Part shown: one piece after another, positions 1-6,873 of the stretch
Layout of the letters: the number at the start of each line of letters is the position of its first letter
Numbering within the stretch: position 1 is the first letter of the stretch
From: Pseudoalteromonas sp.
GTDB taxonomy: Bacteria > Pseudomonadota > Gammaproteobacteria > Enterobacterales > Alteromonadaceae
Reading direction: 5' to 3'
NCBI RefSeq assembly: GCF_018402495.1
Contig: NZ_JAGYIU010000003.1
Span: 1-64,000 of the forward strand
DNA: 64,000 nucleotides
Made by a program: the position numbers and the translations under genes
Notes under the pieces: generated by a model
What the model saw: the letters and a program-made list of their open reading frames with translations, nothing else
Told to the model about the DNA's origin: nothing
Database searches by the model: none

Positions 1-14
1 TATACAGAAGCCAT
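1..14 (-). CDS. First codons of a gene leaving the window leftwards, integron integrase candidate
   Basis: On the minus strand an ATG at 14-12 is preceded by a GGGG-containing ribosome-binding stretch and, further upstream, by a LexA-type box. Only about four codons (Met-Ala-Ser-Val) lie in the window, so the protein cannot be identified from itself. The guess that it is intI rests on context only: integron integrases are commonly LexA-controlled and diverge from their cassette array, and attC-bearing cassettes begin immediately to the right. Another SOS gene is equally possible from this fragment. Confidence 0.35.
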
Positions 15-32
15 GATCTGCCCCAGTTTTCA

Positions 33-48
33 CTGTATATATAAGCAG
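33..48 (-). promoter_or_regulatory. LexA (SOS) box
   Basis: The sequence is CTG-N10-CAG with an AT-alternating centre (CTGTATATATAAGCAG), close to the gammaproteobacterial LexA consensus. It lies about 20 bp upstream of the leftward ATG, where it would cover that promoter. This would place the leftward gene under SOS control. Confidence 0.65.
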
Positions 49-276
49 TAGTTGTATTTAGTTTTTTTCAACAACTCGCGGGGTTATTTCTTGTATTTTA
101 CAACAACAAAAAAACAACAAAAAAACAATAAAAAAACAATAAAAAAACAACAAATATAAATCCCTTGATTTACATTAAGATACAGAGTTAGACTGGAAAT
201 ATTAAAAAACTAAAAGGATTTTCTGTCTGCAACTTGTGGGTTTATATCCTTTGAATAAGCTGTTAGCTGCACAAAG
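49..276. other. Intergenic region between the leftward gene and first cassette, attI candidate
   Basis: The stretch is AT-rich. A run of imperfect A-tract/CAA decamer repeats occupies about 100-155. A GTTAGC core like that of an integron recombination site lies at 262-267, directly before the first cassette gene, and is the best candidate for the attI crossover point. The third purine of the GTTRRRY consensus is not matched. A cassette promoter is expected somewhere here, but I cannot assign -35 and -10 boxes with confidence. Confidence 0.35.
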
Positions 277-747
277 ATGAAATTCGAACTAATTAAATAT
301 ACAGACTTAAATCGGAAGTATTTCGAAGAATCTCTTACTTGGGCTCAATACTATGAGCCGGAAGACATCGATACTCTCGAAGAACTTGGTTTTGACCGTA
401 AAGTGGTATCGGCGGAGTTGGAAAAAATTGGATGGTCTGACGAGTACTGGTTCGCCGTCCCAGAAGATACTAAAATTGGTTCATTTATGTTTGAGCACCG
501 AAAGGCCGATTTCATAACCAAGTCAGGTAAGCATTTAAGTGGCTATGTCGTTAACTCGGGACATTGTGTTTGCATATTTGGTGCAGAAAGGGAATGGGAT
601 ATAAATATAAACCTTCTTGATCTGCTTGAAGAGGAAATTGGTGAACTTAAAGATGATGTGGGTCTAGCAAAGAGTGAAGAGCTATTGCCTTTAGAGGTAA
701 GAATTCCGTTTAAAGGTGTTCAATTTACATTCGCAGAGAGCAGCTAA
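277..747 (+). CDS. Hypothetical acidic protein, probable first integron cassette gene
   Basis: This 156-residue protein is soluble, acidic and rich in Glu, Asp and aromatic residues, with no signal peptide or membrane segment. I recognise no family. The ATG lies about 10 bp after a GTTAGC core, and the stop codon falls in a CTAACA sequence resembling the left arm of an attC site, so the gene fits the usual cassette layout with very short flanks. The reading frame is intact and read rightwards like the following cassette genes. Integron cassette proteins of this size are often of unknown function or are toxin-antitoxin or phage-defence related; nothing visible decides between these. Confidence 0.6.
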   Translation: MKFELIKYTDLNRKYFEESLTWAQYYEPEDIDTLEELGFDRKVVSAELEKIGWSDEYWFAVPEDTKIGSFMFEHRKADFITKSGKHLSGYVVNSGHCVCIFGAEREWDININLLDLLEEEIGELKDDVGLAKSEELLPLEVRIPFKGVQFTFAESS

Positions 748-872
748 CACATATGAGCCTTAACTCTGTCAACAGGCACTAGTATTTTTTTTGACCGTTT
801 TAATAAAGTGACGGTCAATTCTAAATCAATAAACAAATTCGTTTACTTCGTCTGTCGATGCGGCTGTTAAGC
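742..872 (+). other. attC-like site of the first cassette (weak)
   Basis: The left arm GCTAACA overlaps the stop codon of the preceding gene. The right arm ends in GTTAAGC (866-872), a perfect match to the GTTRRRY core. Between them TTGACCGT (791-798) and ACGGTCAA (811-818) form an 8-bp stem that could be the central hairpin or a transcription terminator. The outer arms match only loosely, so this is less certain than the attC sites further right. Confidence 0.4.
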
Positions 873-1255
873 AAGTAGCTTACGGCAAACACATATAAGG
901 TGCGTTACGCAGTAATCGCTTATTACGATCTCATCGCAGCCAGATTTTTCCCATATCCTTTTGGGGTTGCTGGGGCACTAGACATTCATCGGTTAACCTA
1001 ATCATGGCACTATTCAAGGCGGCTGGTTTCATCATTGTGATCCAGTTAGATTAAGGTGCGTAACGCAGTTATCAAGTCAGGTGTAAGCGACTTTGTTTAT
1101 TGTATTAATGCACGCGTACTGAGCGTCTAATCAAGGCAAGTGGCTTAGGTCTGTAGGCATATAATCAGGTTAAACCTTGTTGGTTATTAACTCACCCAAT
1201 TGATTGATGCTCAGCCTTATATCCAGTTAGATGTTCAGCTCACTCAGTACCGTGA
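873..1255 (-). ncRNA. Non-coding flank of the IS110/IS1111 element, candidate bridge RNA region
   Basis: No open reading frame fills these 383 bp, which lie downstream of the transposase stop codon. The region contains two near-identical blocks around AAGGTGCGTTACGCAG (about 897 and 1053) and two copies of ATCCAGTTAGAT (about 1041 and 1220). IS110-family elements are known to encode a structured bridge RNA in a long non-coding end; in the IS1111 subgroup it is downstream of the transposase gene, as here. The RNA itself, its loops and the exact element end are not demonstrated by the sequence alone. Confidence 0.35.
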
Positions 1256-2299
1256 CTAACTCTTTAAGAATTTCGCTTCATCGAATACCGTCTCTTTTTT
1301 AAGCATATAATAAACACAGCGACCAAGCTTATGTGCAAGCGCTGACAGTGCTTTGGCTTTGCTCATTCGCTTTTGTAGTTTTTCAAGGTATTTGTTGGCG
1401 TTGTGATTGTGACGCAGCAGCAATACAGCGGCTTCGGAGAACGCCCATTTTAGATGTGCATTGCCAATTTTATTGCCTTGTGTGCCGTAAGTTTTACCAG
1501 CTGACTCCGCTTTGCATTTGACTAACCGACTGTATGAAGCGAACTTTTGTACGCTTGAAAAACGATTGATGTCACCAATTTCGTAAATGATGGTGAGTGC
1601 TAGAATGCGGCCTATACCATTAATTGTTTGCAAAATATTAAGGTGGACAGGGTTGTGCTGCTTGGCCATTTGTTCAATATAATGCTCTAAAGGCTTAAGC
1701 TCCTTATGATAGCAATCAAGTATAGCCATGTTTAAATTAATAGAGCGTTGTACAACGGGATCAGGAAAGTAATAGCGCATTTTTTCTCTGTCGCAGACGT
1801 TCTTTAAATTGACATTATGGGCAGGTAAATTGTACTGGCTGGCAGTATTGGCGACATGGGCTTTTAAATCAGCGCCATGACGGACGATTTTAGTTCTGCG
1901 CCTTAATAAGTCGCGTGTTGCACGCATATCTTTGTCATAAACATAAGCAAGAGGGAAATTACCACCACGGATGAGTTTGGCAATTTTATGTGAATCTATT
2001 TTATCGTTTTTAGCTTTACCGCCATGAATCGCTTTCATATACAAAGCATGACCAAGGATAAAATCGATAGTGTGTTCTTTGCAAAAGTCAGCGACCCAAT
2101 ACCAACAGTGCATGCACTCTACGCCAACCACAATGTCACCGATATACGGTTTAAGTAGTTTTAGCAGTGCGTCAGGATCATCTTTAATTTTCTTGTGAAC
2201 AAGGATAAGTCCTGTATTATCAATGATACAAACATAAAGTAATCGCGCGTGTAAATCGATTCCACAATAATATGGATGCATGTTATTGTAAAAGTTCAT
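1256..2299 (-). CDS. IS110-family (IS1111-like) transposase
   Basis: The 347-residue product is a DEDD-type recombinase. Near the N terminus is CGIDLHARLLYVCIID with the first Asp, then VVGVECMHCWYW with Glu, then KAKNDKIDSHKIAKL with the paired Asp residues. The C-terminal half carries a transposase_20 domain with a helix-hairpin-helix-like INGIGRILALTI segment followed by ESAGKTYGTQGNKIGN. I chose the ATG at 2299 because a GGAG sits 8 bp upstream; longer in-frame extension to 2371 lacks such support and crosses the element edge. The short upstream and long downstream non-coding flanks favour the IS1111 subgroup. It interrupts an attC site. The frame is intact, so it may be active. Confidence 0.85.
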   Translation of the reverse strand: MNFYNNMHPYYCGIDLHARLLYVCIIDNTGLILVHKKIKDDPDALLKLLKPYIGDIVVGVECMHCWYWVADFCKEHTIDFILGHALYMKAIHGGKAKNDKIDSHKIAKLIRGGNFPLAYVYDKDMRATRDLLRRRTKIVRHGADLKAHVANTASQYNLPAHNVNLKNVCDREKMRYYFPDPVVQRSINLNMAILDCYHKELKPLEHYIEQMAKQHNPVHLNILQTINGIGRILALTIIYEIGDINRFSSVQKFASYSRLVKCKAESAGKTYGTQGNKIGNAHLKWAFSEAAVLLLRHNHNANKYLEKLQKRMSKAKALSALAHKLGRCVYYMLKKETVFDEAKFLKS

Positions 2300-2381
2300 T
2301 GAGCTTTCTCCTGTAAGGTTGGTTGCCATTTCAGCGTAGCGAATAATCGCGATGCTGGGGAGGAGGCTCAATGAGTATCAA

Positions 2382-2470
2382 GCAAATTAATCAGGACTAA
2401 AAAACGTTGGCTAGTTTCGCTACGCTCACTATTTTAGCCAACATTTTTAGCCCATTATTTGGGCGTTATG
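2382..2470 (+). other. attC site, left end interrupted by the IS
   Basis: The arms GTTGGCTA (2406-2413) and TAGCCAAC (2435-2442) form the inner stem, with outer complementary stretches ending in GGGCGTTATG at 2461-2470. The form closely resembles Vibrio-type attC sites. The leading TAA expected before CAAGC is missing, replaced by the insertion sequence. The next cassette gene starts four bases after the GTTATG core. Confidence 0.7.
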
Positions 2471-2474
2471 AGCC

Positions 2475-2864
2475 ATGAGCACTGATAGAGAAAATGCCAA
2501 TTACTGGTACAACGAGCTAGTGGAAGGCCTACGCTTAATTGCTAGTGAGTTTGATGTTCAAGAAAGAGCGCTGCCAGACTTTGTTCACCTTCCCGATGAA
2601 GTCTTGAACGCTGTGGACCTTGATACCTTAAGCTTGGTAGTCGAGCTCGGTCTTGTAACTCAGGAACAAACCGAAAAAATCAAACAGCTTGATTGTGCTC
2701 TGGAGAATATCGAATTGCCTAGCAATTACGAGGCAATGATAGAGGATATGAAAAATGGAAATAGCTTTAATACTTTAAGGAAGATGGCGCATGAGGTGTT
2801 AAATAGCTTGGGTCAAACTTACAAAGAACCAGCTACGAGCGCGGTCTATGTCAAAAGCTCATAA
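2475..2864 (+). CDS. Hypothetical cassette protein, 129 residues
   Basis: A small acidic soluble protein, predicted largely helical, with no signal peptide, membrane segment or motif I recognise. It is a textbook integron cassette gene in layout: the ATG is 4 bp after an attC core, and the TAA stop codon (2862-2864) forms the first bases of the next attC site. There is no clear Shine-Dalgarno sequence, which is common in cassette genes. Function unknown. Confidence 0.65.
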   Translation: MSTDRENANYWYNELVEGLRLIASEFDVQERALPDFVHLPDEVLNAVDLDTLSLVVELGLVTQEQTEKIKQLDCALENIELPSNYEAMIEDMKNGNSFNTLRKMAHEVLNSLGQTYKEPATSAVYVKSS

Positions 2865-2968
2865 CAAAGCAAGTCAATCTGACAGCTTACACTCCGCTTT
2901 GTTTTATGCGGGAAAAGCATCGCATAAAACCAAGCTCCATTACAGCTGCAGTTGCTTGCGGCGTTATG
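2862..2968 (+). other. attC site
   Basis: Starts with TAACAAAGCAAG overlapping the upstream stop codon and ends with CTTGCGGCGTTATG. The terminal arms are complementary (GCAAG/CTTGC around the TAAC/GTTA cores), and inner arms ATGCGGG..GCATCGCAT can fold. Length is 107 bp, within the attC range. It is the recombination site of the 2475-2864 cassette. Confidence 0.75.
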
Positions 2969-2987
2969 TTTTTAAGGGAGTATACGA

Positions 2988-3284
2988 ATGAATAAGTGGA
3001 TGACAAAGAAAAGAATTATTACGTTGGCAACGTTGCCAGTGGCAGGCTTGAGTTTCACAATTCTTTTAAATTTTCTCGCCGGACCCGGATACTCAACTTC
3101 AATAAATCAGGGGGCAGTTGCTGTGTACCTCCTTGGTTCTGTCTTATGGTCTGTTGCCGCAATTACTGCTGGCGTGTATATGTATTCAAAGTGCAGCTCA
3201 ATGAATACCAAAAAATTTATACCAGGAATTTTCTCAGTTTTTATAGGTGCAGGCTTGCCGTGGATAGTTGGCATGCAACTATGA
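2988..3284 (+). CDS. Small membrane protein, integron cassette
   Basis: The 98-residue product has three hydrophobic segments, at about 10-31, 41-63 and 76-95, with a positively charged N terminus (KWMTKKR), so it should sit in the inner membrane. A GGGAG ribosome-binding site precedes the ATG at a good distance. The gene lies between two attC sites in the same orientation as its neighbours. I recognise no family; small membrane proteins are frequent in cassettes. Confidence 0.6.
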   Translation: MNKWMTKKRIITLATLPVAGLSFTILLNFLAGPGYSTSINQGAVAVYLLGSVLWSVAAITAGVYMYSKCSSMNTKKFIPGIFSVFIGAGLPWIVGMQL

Positions 3285-3294
3285 CAGCCAAACA

Positions 3295-3371
3295 TAACAA
3301 TCGCCATCAAAAACGCGCCCGTTGGGTGCTCGACTCGCAACAAGTTGCTCGCGTTTTTGGTGGCGTTATAT
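3295..3371 (+). other. attC site
   Basis: A clear 77-bp site. TAACAATCGCCATCAAAAAC on the left is nearly perfectly complementary to GTTTTTGGTGGCGTTATA on the right, with a GCAACAAGTTGC palindrome in the loop region. This is the strongest attC in the window and supports the integron reading of the neighbourhood. Confidence 0.85.
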
Positions 3372-3393
3372 TTCTTTAGCATGGAGCATACCT

Positions 3394-3855
3394 TTGAAGA
3401 ATTTTGTTTTAATTATATTTTGTTTGTTTTTAATTAGTTGTAAATCAACTCAGTCTAAATCCGATAGCCTTCAGTTTGGAGTTAATTTAAATACGCATCC
3501 TGAACTTACAAAAGCTGAGAGATCTCTATGGTTTGGTTTCAGTTTTGGTTTAGGTACTTGTATTCAAAATGAGGGTGCCTCATATAATAACTTTCCAATT
3601 TCTTGTGAAGTTACAGCAAGAACAATTATGGCTCAAATGTATGAGAATGAACCTGATAAAAGTGCCTATAAAGATGTTTATGCTAGAGAGCTTTATTCCG
3701 TATATAAAGCTGGGTTCATAGAGCAATATGTGTGGTTCTTCCATAACCAAAAAGAATGGAACAAGCCAAGAAACATCGAAAAGTATAAAATATGGGCATC
3801 TAAAAATTTAACGACACATAATCAACAAACGAAGTTTGTGGGTAAATATCAATAA
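3394..3855 (+). CDS. Predicted lipoprotein, integron cassette, TTG start
   Basis: The most plausible start is TTG at 3394, preceded 7 bp upstream by GGAG. It gives a 153-residue protein opening with Lys, a hydrophobic stretch FVLIIFCLFL and the lipobox LISC (Cys at residue 16), so a lipoprotein signal peptide. A longer in-frame start at 3322 would run through the upstream attC site and bury the signal, so I reject it. The mature part is soluble with no motif I know. The stop lies just before the next attC site. Function unknown. Confidence 0.6.
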   Translation: MKNFVLIIFCLFLISCKSTQSKSDSLQFGVNLNTHPELTKAERSLWFGFSFGLGTCIQNEGASYNNFPISCEVTARTIMAQMYENEPDKSAYKDVYARELYSVYKAGFIEQYVWFFHNQKEWNKPRNIEKYKIWASKNLTTHNQQTKFVGKYQ

Positions 3856-3858
3856 ATA

Positions 3859-3945
3859 TAACAAGCACCTCAAAAAAGGACGTAAAAAGCTTGGCTTGCG
3901 TCACTTCGTTTCTAATTTTAGCCAAGCATTTTACGCCTGTTAGGC
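3859..3945 (+). other. attC site, last of the array
   Basis: Runs from TAACAAGCACC to GCCTGTTAGGC. The core GTTAGGC matches GTTRRRY exactly. Inner arms AAAAAGCTTGGCT and AGCCAAGCATTTT are complementary. No further attC is recognisable to the right, so this marks the distal edge of the visible cassette array. Confidence 0.7.
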
Positions 3946-4342
3946 GAACGTTTTGGTATGACTCCCACTGTCAAGTTAAGCACACTGATCCTTGCCTAAC
4001 TTTTTAAGCCATAATTACTTCAGCTCGAATTAGAGCGAGTTAATACATAGGATAAAGCAAGTAATGTCGTCGGTTATCTTGCTGATATGACTATAGGCGT
4101 CCTGCCTTTCGTAAATCAGCTACGCTGTTCAAAATTGTTCCATACAATTTTGTCGTTGGTTATTACTATTTCTAGTAACAGAGCAAACCTTACTTAGTAC
4201 GTCCTGTGGGGGTCACCGATGGCCCCTGTCTTCAGTCTATGTTCGTGGTTCAATGCAGTGTTAGCTGCATTGCCATCCTAACGCCGTCGGTGGTTGTGCC
4301 ACATCCGATGCTTGATCCCATGCATTAACTCTAATTCGTTTA
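3946..4342. other. Non-coding stretch beside an IS110 remnant, with a long-range inverted repeat
   Basis: No gene is supported here. CGAATTAGAG (4026-4035) followed by TTAATAC recurs inverted as GCATTAACTCTAATTCG (4322-4338), bracketing about 300 bp immediately downstream of the transposase remnant. The bracketed DNA is rich in short palindromes. It may be the non-coding end of the damaged IS110-family element, possibly its former bridge RNA region. Confidence 0.4.
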
Positions 4343-4615
4343 TCATGCGGGTACTCTTGCCAATCTAAGTTTTGTATTCACTGGCGTAAGTACCACTTCT
4401 TTTGCAATGGTCTGTATGTACGCAATCATTTCTCGGGCAATTTCGGTGAAAACCAAGTTGTAGTGTTTTCCTTTGGCTATCATTTTTTTATAGCGCTTGC
4501 AGAGCCTAAGCTGTGCTTTCCACGCAATATCAATAATGTCTTTTGGTAAACCTTCTTGTCGTTTTTGCATATCTGTGGATATATTTGCTGCATACCGATA
4601 AGTGTGCACCTTCAA
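4343..4615 (-). pseudogene. C-terminal remnant of an IS110-family transposase
   Basis: The roughly 90 residues resemble the tail of a distinct IS110-family group, with the pattern MQKRQEGLPKDIIDIAWKAQ followed by LCKRYKKMIAKGKHYN and an ending of the type VVAIARELxxFIWxIAKEV. The catalytic DEDD portion is absent. Upstream sequence runs directly into the damaged antitoxin gene, so the front was lost by deletion or rearrangement. It differs from the intact transposase at 1256-2299, so a second element is implied. Family assignment is from memory of the tail pattern. Confidence 0.6.
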
Positions 4616-4902
4616 GAGAAGGCGTCTTGCTCGGCCGTTTCCGCACTTTGTGATGGCGCCAATATGGCGTTTGCCACCACTCGAGTATCAGGGCGGTCTA
4701 AAGCTTCCATCAGCAACATAGCATCCGCTTGGCTCAGTTTTAAAGTCTGTTCACGTTCGATGACTTGTTTAGCTTTTTAGATTGCAGCGCTTAGAACAAA
4801 CGAGTTGATGTTAGACATGCCGGCGATCGCGGCGGCCTTATTAAGTAAGTCTTGTGTATCGACATCAACTCTAGCGGTGATGCGAAGCAAAGTAGTAGCC
4901 AT
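4612..4902 (-). pseudogene. Broken DUF1778 (TacA-like) antitoxin gene with in-frame stop
   Basis: From ATG 4902 the frame reads a ribbon-helix-helix N terminus (LLRITARVDVDTQDLLNKAA, then INSFVLSAAI) typical of DUF1778 antitoxins. A TAA then interrupts at codon 42, and the same frame continues as KAKQVIEREQTLKLS and EALDRP, the expected continuation. One base change, GAA to TAA, explains it. The normal partner, a GNAT acetyltransferase toxin downstream, is missing and replaced by the IS110 remnant. A truncated 41-residue DNA-binding part could still be made. Confidence 0.7.
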
Positions 4903-4918
4903 AATTATATCTCCTATT

Positions 4919-4988
4919 GTGCCAAAATGTCACATAGGTATTAGGGTCTTAAAGTGTGTAATAAACAATTATTGTGTCACTTTGGCAC
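4919..4988 (-). promoter_or_regulatory. Promoter region of the antitoxin with paired inverted operators
   Basis: GTGCCAAAATGTCACA (4919-4934) and TGTGTCACTTTGGCAC (4973-4988) are inverted copies differing at two positions, 38 bp apart, upstream of the antitoxin start. Such paired sites are typical of autoregulated RHH toxin-antitoxin operons. The operators are preserved although the operon is broken. Confidence 0.55.
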
Positions 4989-5295
4989 GCAAACTAATCG
5001 GGTAGCCGGCGGTTTCTAAGCTCCACATCACCCATCATGGGCTTTTTATTTACAGGAAGCAAAACAGTAAGGTCAGGTCTTGCGTTTTATTATAAAAGTC
5101 AAAAAGAAAGATCTGATCCTGCCTCCGCCACAGTGCCAACTTAGCCTTAATGGTATATTTTTATTAAGATGCCAGTAAAAAACGGCTCTGGTTCTAAAAT
5201 TGGTGTACGCTTGTCTTATTCGCTATTCGTAAGCTGCGCTTTAAACTGTTTTAGTTGCTGACAGTAAATAGATCGATATCACTAAGGATGTGTTG
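4989..5295. other. Intergenic region before the lactate permease
   Basis: CCCATCATGGG (5031-5041) followed by CTTTTTATTT is a small terminator-like hairpin. Loosely inverted GTCAGGTCTTGC/GATCTGATCCTGCC sequences follow at about 5073-5122. A promoter for the permease is expected just upstream of 5296; I cannot place its boxes confidently. No gene is seen. Confidence 0.35.
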
Positions 5296-6873
5296 ATGAA
5301 TACCGTAATAGCGGCTTTGCCGATTATTATTTTAATTTGGTTAATGACTAAGCGCGATCCGCTTCCTTCATATATTGCGCTGCCAGCCATGGCGTTATTA
5401 ACTGGGCTTTTACAGCTAGTTTATTTTCGTGCTGATTGGCAATTAGTCGCCGCTAATATGCTGGCTGGTGGTTTATCGGTTGCTACGCCTATTTCTATTA
5501 TTGCCGGTGCTATTTTGCTCAATAGGTTGTTAGCTATTTCTGGTGCTGAAGCAACGATTAAAAGCTGGTTAGAATCAATAAGCAGTAATCCTGTTGCGCA
5601 ACTAATGATCATCGGTTGGGCGTTTGCCTTTATGATTGAAGGTGCCTCTGGATTTGGCACTCCAGCTGCAATTGCAGCTCCTTTATTGGTTGGTCTAGGT
5701 TTTGCGCCGCTTAAAGTCGTGGTGTTTACGTTGATATTAAACTCTGTGCCTGTGTCGTTTGGTGCTGTGGGTACTCCCACATGGTTCGGTTTTTCGAGTT
5801 TAAATTTAGCACCAGAGCAAATACTGGCTATATCACAATGGACTGCGTTATGTCATGTTGTTGCGGCAATGGTCATTGTGCCCATTGCCTTGCGGTTTGT
5901 GTTATCTGCAGAGGTGATCCGTCGCAATGGGATCTATATTTACTTAAGCATTTTTTCCTGCGTGTTACCTTATTGGTGGATAGCGCAATGGAATTACGAA
6001 TTTCCTTCTTTACTTGGTGGCGCTATCGGCCTAGTACTGAGCGTTGTGTTTGCTAAATTTAATATTGGTTTAAGCACCGCAGACAAACAGATAACGCACA
6101 GCGTGAACATTTCGCGCAAAACACTGCTTATTGCGTTATCGCCATTATTGTTACTGATAATTGTTTTGTTGCTCACGCGAATTCAGCAGTTAGGCATTAA
6201 AGACTGGTTAAATAACGACAGTGCCTGGTTAGCGGCCGATTTGAGCTTTGCGCAATTTCAACTTAGTGCAGCCTTAATAATCTCACTGCAAGATATTTTT
6301 GCCACAGGGGTTAGCTGGTCGTATAAAACGTTGTATGTACCTGCCATTATTCCGTTTGTACTTGTGGTGGCGGTGTGTTTGCCGTTATTAAAAATGAATA
6401 CTAAACAAGTTAAACAAATGTGCAACGAAACAGCGCAACGAATCGTTTTACCTTGTGTTTCGTTATTGGGCGCATTGATTATGGTTAATTTTATGATGCT
6501 AGGTGAACACAACGCACCAATTTTTTATATGGCACAATCGTTTGCGCAACTGAGTGGTGAGAATTGGACCTTGTTTGCGGCTTTTCTCGGTGCTTTAGGA
6601 ACATTTTTTTCCGGCTCAGCAACGGTCTCTAACCTAACTTTTGCTGGTATTCAATACAGCATAGCGCAGCAGGTGGGCTTACCGACTACATTAATACTTG
6701 CACTACAGTCCGTTGGTGCAGCAATGGGTAATATGGTCTGTATAAGTAATATTATCGCGGTGGCAAGTATTGTTGGTTTAAATAACCAAGAAGGCGTGGT
6801 GATCAAAAAAACAGTGCTGCCGATGCTGATTTATGCTGCAATTATTGGCATATTTAGTTATGTGTTTTTTTAA
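5296..6873 (+). CDS. lctP: LctP-family L-lactate/glycolate permease
   Basis: A 525-residue polytopic inner-membrane transporter with about 12-14 hydrophobic helices. The family signature EGASGFGTPAAIAAPLL is present at about residue 115, followed by FGAVGTPTWFGF, both typical of LctP. It would import L-lactate or a related 2-hydroxy acid by proton symport. I prefer ATG 5296 over GTG 5290 because AGGA sits about 7 bp upstream. No lactate dehydrogenase genes are adjacent, so it may be transcribed alone. The length matches the family. Confidence 0.88.
   Translation: MNTVIAALPIIILIWLMTKRDPLPSYIALPAMALLTGLLQLVYFRADWQLVAANMLAGGLSVATPISIIAGAILLNRLLAISGAEATIKSWLESISSNPVAQLMIIGWAFAFMIEGASGFGTPAAIAAPLLVGLGFAPLKVVVFTLILNSVPVSFGAVGTPTWFGFSSLNLAPEQILAISQWTALCHVVAAMVIVPIALRFVLSAEVIRRNGIYIYLSIFSCVLPYWWIAQWNYEFPSLLGGAIGLVLSVVFAKFNIGLSTADKQITHSVNISRKTLLIALSPLLLLIIVLLLTRIQQLGIKDWLNNDSAWLAADLSFAQFQLSAALIISLQDIFATGVSWSYKTLYVPAIIPFVLVVAVCLPLLKMNTKQVKQMCNETAQRIVLPCVSLLGALIMVNFMMLGEHNAPIFYMAQSFAQLSGENWTLFAAFLGALGTFFSGSATVSNLTFAGIQYSIAQQVGLPTTLILALQSVGAAMGNMVCISNIIAVASIVGLNNQEGVVIKKTVLPMLIYAAIIGIFSYVFF

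What the first reader, a model, noticed from the sequence alone, without database searches (positions are those of the whole stretch)
873..2470. IS110/IS1111 element inserted into an attC site, with a possible bridge RNA
The transposase is intact, the attC to its right lacks exactly the first TAA, and 380 bp of non-coding DNA with internal repeated blocks lies at its 3' side. Known IS1111-attC elements target cassette sites, and IS110-family enzymes use a bridge RNA. This copy may therefore carry an RNA guide specific to attC sequences.
Basis: partly seen in the sequence, partly recalled or inferred. Interest (0 to 1): 0.6.

Follow-up and report, generated by a model that had tools for sequence, protein, structure and literature searches.

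The report
RNA-guided jumping gene targeting integron cassettes
A small jumping gene in what is probably a Pseudoalteromonas genome sits in the recombination site of a gene cassette and very probably finds such sites with a built-in guide RNA, as its known relatives do; its RNA seems to carry a second copy of the target-reading part, which is the only unusual feature.

Summary
The element is real, but its left boundary is not at 873. It spans window 750-2378 (1629 bp) between CA at 748-749 and 2379-2380. The transposase (2299-1256, minus strand) is IS110/IS1111 type. Related empty attC sites in the genus read TAA-CA-AG, so the element split an attC directly after the stop codon of the upstream cassette gene. 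Of 73 distinct left flanks 72 end in TTG, and 51-53 of 55 right flanks continue TTA, in an attC-like setting. The 506-nt non-coding region holds three conserved RNA modules with compensatory changes. Module D looks like a donor loop; its right-end match mostly follows the element's right end. Modules A and B each carry TAAC and TTGA strings for the two halves of the attC core. In a sister clade with other targets, module A follows the elements' own flanks on the whole (0 of 20,000 and 0 of 5,000 permutations); module B does so more weakly. This is a new member of the RNA-guided IS1111 elements that target attC. Possibly new: a second target-reading loop, and preference for attC although about 930 guide-compatible 8-mers exist in the genome.

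The parts
750..2378 (-). whole insertion sequence (1629 bp without the CA core)
   Evidence: ends from 9 close relatives and from related empty attC sites in the genus
748..749 (.). core dinucleotide CA (TG on the element strand), right-end side
   Evidence: empty site TAA-CA-AG
2379..2380 (.). core dinucleotide CA, left-end side
   Evidence: empty site
1256..2299 (-). IS110/IS1111 transposase, 347 aa
   Evidence: the 80 best of 174 relatives kept
754..760 (.). subterminal inverted repeat TGAGCCT, right end
   Evidence: sequence; changes together with the other end in L054
2364..2370 (.). subterminal inverted repeat AGGCTCA, left end
   Evidence: sequence
1111..1255 (-). RNA module A: target-binding loop; 15-pair closing stem, 11 pairs with changes on both sides in relatives
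   Evidence: sister-clade permutation tests
1226..1230 (-). module A right-target guide CTAAC (pairs GTTAG of attC)
   Evidence: TAACT the same in 30 of 30 aligned relatives, the C before it in at least 90% (the rows were picked by text patterns, see full report)
1127..1136 (-). module A left-target guide CCTTGATTAG (matches YTTG of attC)
   Evidence: TTGATTA[G/T] found in 64 of 66 non-coding regions
993..1084 (-). RNA module B: second, target-like loop
   Evidence: weaker target tracking
1045..1049 (-). module B CTAAC
   Evidence: TAACTG the same in 30 of 30 aligned relatives (rows picked by text patterns)
1012..1020 (-). module B CTTGAATAG
   Evidence: TTGAATAG in 30 of 30 aligned relatives, but used to pick them; L023, L034 and L035 have TTGTATAG or TTGACTAG
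872..994 (-). RNA module D: donor-like loop
   Evidence: 28 relatives
983..992 (-). module D left-end guide GATGAATGTC, complementary to GATACTCAT with one mismatch and one wobble
   Evidence: sequence; (inferred, no clear covariation)
886..897 (-). module D right-end guide TATATGTGTTTG
   Evidence: 55 rows CATATG with [TA]ATATG, 5 rows CATAGG with AATAGG; of 5 further rows 2 fit by eye and 3 do not (L017, L027, L076)
896..917 (.). palindromic replacement in module D (TGCGTWACGCA)
1052..1073 (.). palindromic replacement in module B
767..772 (-). -35-like TTGACA near the right end
   Evidence: sequence, by eye; with 2374-2379 it gives an 18-nt spacer in the circle
2374..2379 (-). -10-like GATACT at the left end
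   Evidence: sequence, by eye
791..818 (.). hairpin near the right end
   Evidence: sequence; a hairpin with other letters is seen by eye in relatives
745..747 (+). first TAA of the split attC, also the stop codon of cassette ORF 277-747
2381..2471 (+). remainder of the split attC
   Evidence: related attC sites in the genus, 79-84% identical

Best explanation
It is an intact IS1111-family element of the kind that targets integron attC sites. When excised as a circle, its joined ends form a promoter (TTGACA-18-GATACT) that drives the transposase and a downstream RNA. In that RNA, loop A pairs with both strands of the attC left core (CTAAC with GTTAG, YTTGA with the complement of YTTG). Loop D pairs with the joined element ends (TATATGTG with the right end, GATGAATGTC with the left end). 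The transposase then recombines circle and attC at the TG core, leaving the element between TAA and AG of the attC. Shown here: ends, attC setting, conserved RNA fold, agreement of loop D with the right end in most relatives, and agreement of loop A with the flanks in sister elements. Inferred: promoter use, circle, RNA processing, pairing in the cell, and the role of loop B, which I suggest helps to read the target halves that flank the inserted element during excision.
For: Transposase. Ends and related empty sites: (29 fetched sites: 20 uninterrupted with TAACAA[G/A], 6 uninterrupted with a changed left core, 2 occupied by a related element, 1 cut off). Same junction: 73 distinct left flanks, last letters T 72, T 73, G 73 of 73; 55 right flanks, G 55, T 53, T 52, A 51 of 55. 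attC setting: a 1R-like motif in 54 of 75 flanks against 14 of 72 control stretches. Fold: module A 98.7% of cells paired, covariation score 0.622 against 0.222 shuffled and at most 0.185 slid; module B 0.469 against 0.114 and at most 0.096; module D 0.269 against 0.105 and at most 0.034. Donor loop and right end; also Manganitrophus L091, right end ATAAG with loop ATAAGTG. Target loop in the sister clade: A against flanks 0 of 20,000 permutations and 0 of 5,000 with whole modules. Order: top-strand complement first, as reported for IS1111 (PMC11187229, passages).
Against: No expression or activity data. Within the attC clade the target does not vary, so assigning loop A to attC leans on sister elements only about 29-35% identical in transposase where measured. 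Two of the 15 distinct sister elements (L186, L191) fit their right flank poorly. The donor left-end guide has a mismatch and a wobble and does not follow left-end changes in this clade. Three relatives have a donor loop that does not fit their right end (L017, L027, L076), and L100 and L101 (52% and 50% identical) fit poorly. The window copy has palindromic replacements in modules B and D. Some measures of the structure test do not exceed shuffles: pairs with double change and pair types for B (91 and 113 of 500), pair types for D (399 of 500). About nine of 75 relatives are not in an attC that I could recognise. The shared core is only about 8 bp and does not by itself explain attC preference (928 matches in the genome).
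Confidence: 0.86

Rival explanations
1. The transposase itself, or the folded attC hairpin, is what is recognised; the structured RNA acts only as a scaffold or regulator.
For: The shared core is short and occurs 928 times in the genome, while most of 75 copies sit in an attC setting.
Against: In the sister clade loop A follows the flanks from element to element, which protein reading would not produce; about nine copies of the attC clade sit at the core sequence without a recognisable attC.
Confidence: 0.15
2. The element reached attC once and its copies are carried around by cassette exchange.
For: It lies in a cassette array.
Against: 73 distinct left flanks, at the same position; one strain has two copies in two different attC sites (L014 and L015).
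Confidence: 0.03
3. Module B is a leftover copy of module A without function, or a stem that keeps only a chance likeness to the target.
For: The blind test for B is weak: left flank 49 of 5,000, right flank 529 of 5,000 for 15 distinct elements.
Against: B's stems covary, its loop letters are nearly constant in the attC clade, and the motif-anchored test gives 0 and 31 of 20,000.
Confidence: 0.45

Closest known systems
ISKpn4, ISPst6 and ISPa25 (IS1111 family, attC targets; PMC11187229, abstract, passages and sections 10 and 13 seen)
   Different: I had no sequence of these to compare. Klebsiella (64) and Escherichia (73) records appear among plasmid hits at E 1e-5, but neither is among the ten commonest genera nor the 60 of 173 listed rows at E 1e-10, so the kinship is probably distant. 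The non-coding region here is 506 nt
ISPa21 in class 1 integrons (PMC11616780, passages seen)
   Same: IS1111 group element in cassette attC sites
   Different: clinical class 1 integrons there; sequence not compared
IS621 bridge RNA (PMC11208160, section 12 and passages; PMC11208158, passages)
   Different: IS110 group: the RNA lies upstream of the gene and the order of the two target guides is reversed (PMC11187229, passages); 177 nt with one target-binding loop

Membership tests
IS1111 family | DEDD transposase with PF01548 and PF02371 | tested here: met
IS1111 family | long non-coding region downstream of the transposase gene | tested here: met
   506 nt
IS1111 family | subterminal inverted repeats (7-17 bp in PMC11208160; 11-13 bp in PMC11187229) with asymmetric outer extensions | tested here: inconclusive
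   only 7 bp exact (TGAGCCT); outer extensions 8 and 4 nt without the core, the same difference of 4 as the reported 7 and 3
IS1111 family | RNA with top-strand complement 5' of the bottom-strand match | tested here: met
   modules A and B
IS1111-attC group | insertion at one fixed position and orientation at one end of attC | tested here: met
   (73 distinct left flanks, 55 right flanks); about nine of 75 not in a recognisable attC
IS1111-attC group | sequence kinship with ISKpn4 or ISPst6 in transposase and RNA region | not tested
   no sequence on hand; the record tried was one for ISEc11 and was not held
bridge RNA / seekRNA system | RNA binds the transposase and is needed for transposition | not testable with these tools
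   needs experiment
bridge RNA / seekRNA system | loops covary with target and donor | tested here: met
   donor right end: with three misfits; target: sister clade only

The most novel reading that the evidence does not exclude
IS1111-type RNAs carry two target-reading loops plus one donor loop. Loop A finds the empty target for insertion, while loop B together with donor loop D reads the four half-sites of the inserted element (left flank, right flank, left end, right end) for excision. [quoted passage not shown]
Probability: 0.35. Interest if true: 0.65.

Novelty: new member of a known kind. Interest (0 to 1): 0.45.

Why it matters
It shows, by natural variation alone, which parts of an IS1111 RNA probably read target and donor. 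It adds a sizeable, mostly marine clade of attC-targeting elements. Two questions become directly testable: whether IS1111 RNAs have a second target loop used for excision, and how an RNA that reads about 8 bp prefers attC sites among some 930 matching sequences.

Tried and rejected
Rfam search of 1-6000 with permissive threshold: no match. Search for the same cassette without the element in 108 genus genomes: only the window and a 25-bp match; related attC sites were used instead. Plasmid search with the right-hand cassette (2385-2870): no match. Viral contigs: no relative of either transposase. The 22-bp palindromic repeat as guide: rejected, because it is absent from most relatives and, with up to 2 mismatches, found nowhere else in the genome. 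A crude inverted-repeat test for attC was weak (31 of 75 against 9 of 72), so a 1R-like motif was used (54 of 75 against 14 of 72); 21 of 75 miss it, and by eye about 12 of these still look like attC. A spaced attC-like pattern is not enriched in the own genome (25 places against 65 for the reversed control). Covariation of the donor left-end guide with left-end changes inside the attC clade: not seen. Global folding of the whole non-coding region gave a partial structure only. A first version of the blind test stopped with an error; the second is. No covariance model was built and no protein structure was predicted.

Rows dropped; 65 rows; the script put 5 outside the pattern. L030 and L079 fit when read by eye; L017, L027 and L076 do not. 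Structure alignments: of 44 non-redundant sequences I listed 43 (not L083); five failed the text match for module B (L023, L034, L035, L056, L066); of the 38 left I used 30 and left out the window, L014, L016, L017, L018, L024, L076 and L084. Module D used 28, because L037 and L049 failed the text match. The window copy is thus in none of the three structure alignments. Sister clade: 19 of 28 loci looked at were used; L105 had been seen without a readable motif, and L109, L110, L189, L201, L205, L206, L208, L210 and L212 were left out (cut short, no right end found, or not worked out). One search used segments that I picked at homologous positions after having looked at matches, so it may flatter the result; one search lacks that flaw and is weaker for module B.

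Full report
What is there. The window lies at the start of contig C4 of a genome that is probably Pseudoalteromonas, as the closest named relatives of the transposase are. A cassette gene (277-747), a split attC and further cassette-like ORFs (2475-3855) surround an insertion sequence. Its transposase runs 2299 to 1256 on the minus strand and has both IS110-family domains. The own genome holds no second close copy; the next match is 32% identical. Two genes over the cut-off of the integron integrase model lie elsewhere, one of them on the same contig at C4:174483-175430.

Ends. Ten named loci have a 95-100% identical transposase (L011-L019, L025). Nine of them align with the window past 873 as far as GGCTCATATG, window 750; L019 is cut short in the transposase. 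On the other side they begin at TTGATACTC or TGATACTC. A scan of the genus with the attC remainder hit 90 of 108 genomes, own included. Of the 29 loci fetched besides the window, 20 show an uninterrupted TAACAA[G/A] site, 6 an uninterrupted site with another left core, 2 are occupied by a related element and 1 is cut off. The element is therefore 750-2378 between two CA copies, and the TAA before it is both the first TAA of the attC and the stop codon of the upstream cassette gene.

Target. In 80 sequences with a readable left end (79 relatives and the window) there are 73 distinct left flanks of at least 25 bases and 55 right flanks. The junction is YTTG|TTA (Y in 68 of 73) with a GTCC box 16-19 bases away (G 42, T 46, C 47, C 48 of 73), T at -12 (61 of 73) and A at -9 (58 of 73). 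This is the attC left-end pattern (pattern recalled, not from a call). A 1R-like motif follows in 54 of 75 against 14 of 72 control stretches. Nine copies (L021, L048, L059, L072, L074, L078, L080, L084, L085) are not in an attC that I could recognise by eye. YTTGTTAK itself occurs 928 times in the own genome, against 945 for the reversed control, so the core alone is not selective.

RNA. The region between stop codon and right end is conserved in blocks across genera (66 sequences aligned, window included). Structure was tested on relatives only. Module A (window 1255-1111): 15-pair closing stem, 11 pairs with changes on both sides, score 0.622 against 0.222 shuffled and at most 0.185 slid (30 sequences). 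Module B (1084-993): 14 pairs, 7 with double changes, 0.469 against 0.114 and at most 0.096 (30 sequences). Module D (994-872): 20 pairs, 11 with double changes, 0.269 against 0.105 and at most 0.034 (28 sequences). The structures were derived from the same alignments, which favours them over slid versions; for B the number of doubly changed pairs and of pair types, and for D the number of pair types, do not exceed shuffles. Inside A and B lie TAACT with TTGATTA, and TAACTG with TTGAATAG, the same in all 30 aligned rows; these rows had been picked partly by those letters. TTGATTA[G/T] was found in 64 of 66 non-coding regions; module B differs in L023, L034 and L035. On the element strand the target reads YTTG TTAG, so CTAAC is the complement of its right half and YTTGA a match of its left half, in the order reported for IS1111 (PMC11187229, passages).

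Donor loop. The two strands of module D match the element ends: TATATGTG matches CATATGTG of the right end, GATGAATGTC is complementary to GATACTCAT of the left end with one mismatch and one wobble. Where the right end is CATAGG (5 rows), the loop reads AATAGG; where it is CATATG, the loop reads [TA]ATATG (55 rows); no crossed case. Of the 5 remaining rows two fit by eye and three do not (L017, L027, L076). The five CATAGG rows may stem from one event. A Nitrospirota plasmid element with a broken transposase frame and right end ATAAG has the loop ATAAGTG. L100 and L101 fit poorly.

Sister clade. Elements with about 29-35% identical transposase, where measured, have three comparable modules but different targets. 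Examples: L104 right flank GACCCCGTT with loop AACGGGGTC; L199 GTCACCGTA with TACGGTGAC; L211 ACACAGGG with CCCTGTGT; L196 left flank CAAGACCTGA with the same ten letters in loop A. L186 and L191 fit poorly. With segments at homologous positions, 15 distinct elements: A against both flanks was reached by 0 of 20,000 permutations, B right by 31 and B left by 0. With whole modules searched blindly: A 0 and 0 of 5,000; B left 49, B right 529 of 5,000. Module A is thus the target loop; module B follows the target more loosely. Relatedness of elements is not corrected for in these tests.

Reading. This is an RNA-guided IS1111 element of the attC-targeting sort. The kind is known (PMC11187229, abstract, passages and two sections; PMC11616780, passages; PMC11208160, section 12 and passages). 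I saw no mention of two target loops in the passages and searches that I made, but figures and supplements were not seen and a founding attC paper was not held, so this is not a claim that it is unpublished. [quoted passage not shown] A role of module B in excision would fit both, but is inference.

Noticed in passing
896-917 and 1052-1073: Two near-identical palindromic blocks (TGCGTWACGCA) replace the AGCCT strings of modules B and D. Other Pseudoalteromonas copies have one or the other (L016 in B; L014, L015, L017 in D); with up to 2 mismatches there is no further copy in the own genome.
   Followed up: partly
L014, L015, L056, L076: Extra blocks of similar sequence (TCTCGGCT..) at the same place inside module D of elements in Pseudoalteromonas, Shewanella and Neptunomonas, perhaps a small mobile or exchanged block.
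   Followed up: no
L188 (own genome, contig C4 97706-98719): A second IS1111-type element in the same genome, of the sister clade, whose module A fits its own right flank (scores).
   Followed up: partly
L072, L073, L074 and L070, L071, L075: Alteromonas oceani contigs break at the ends of this element, and L072 and L074 lie outside attC sites that I could recognise.
   Followed up: no
2475-2864, 2988-3284, 3397-3855: Further cassette-like ORFs without a Pfam match.
   Followed up: no
L054: Both inverted repeats changed together (TGAACC and GGTTCA), a natural compensatory change of the ends.
   Followed up: no
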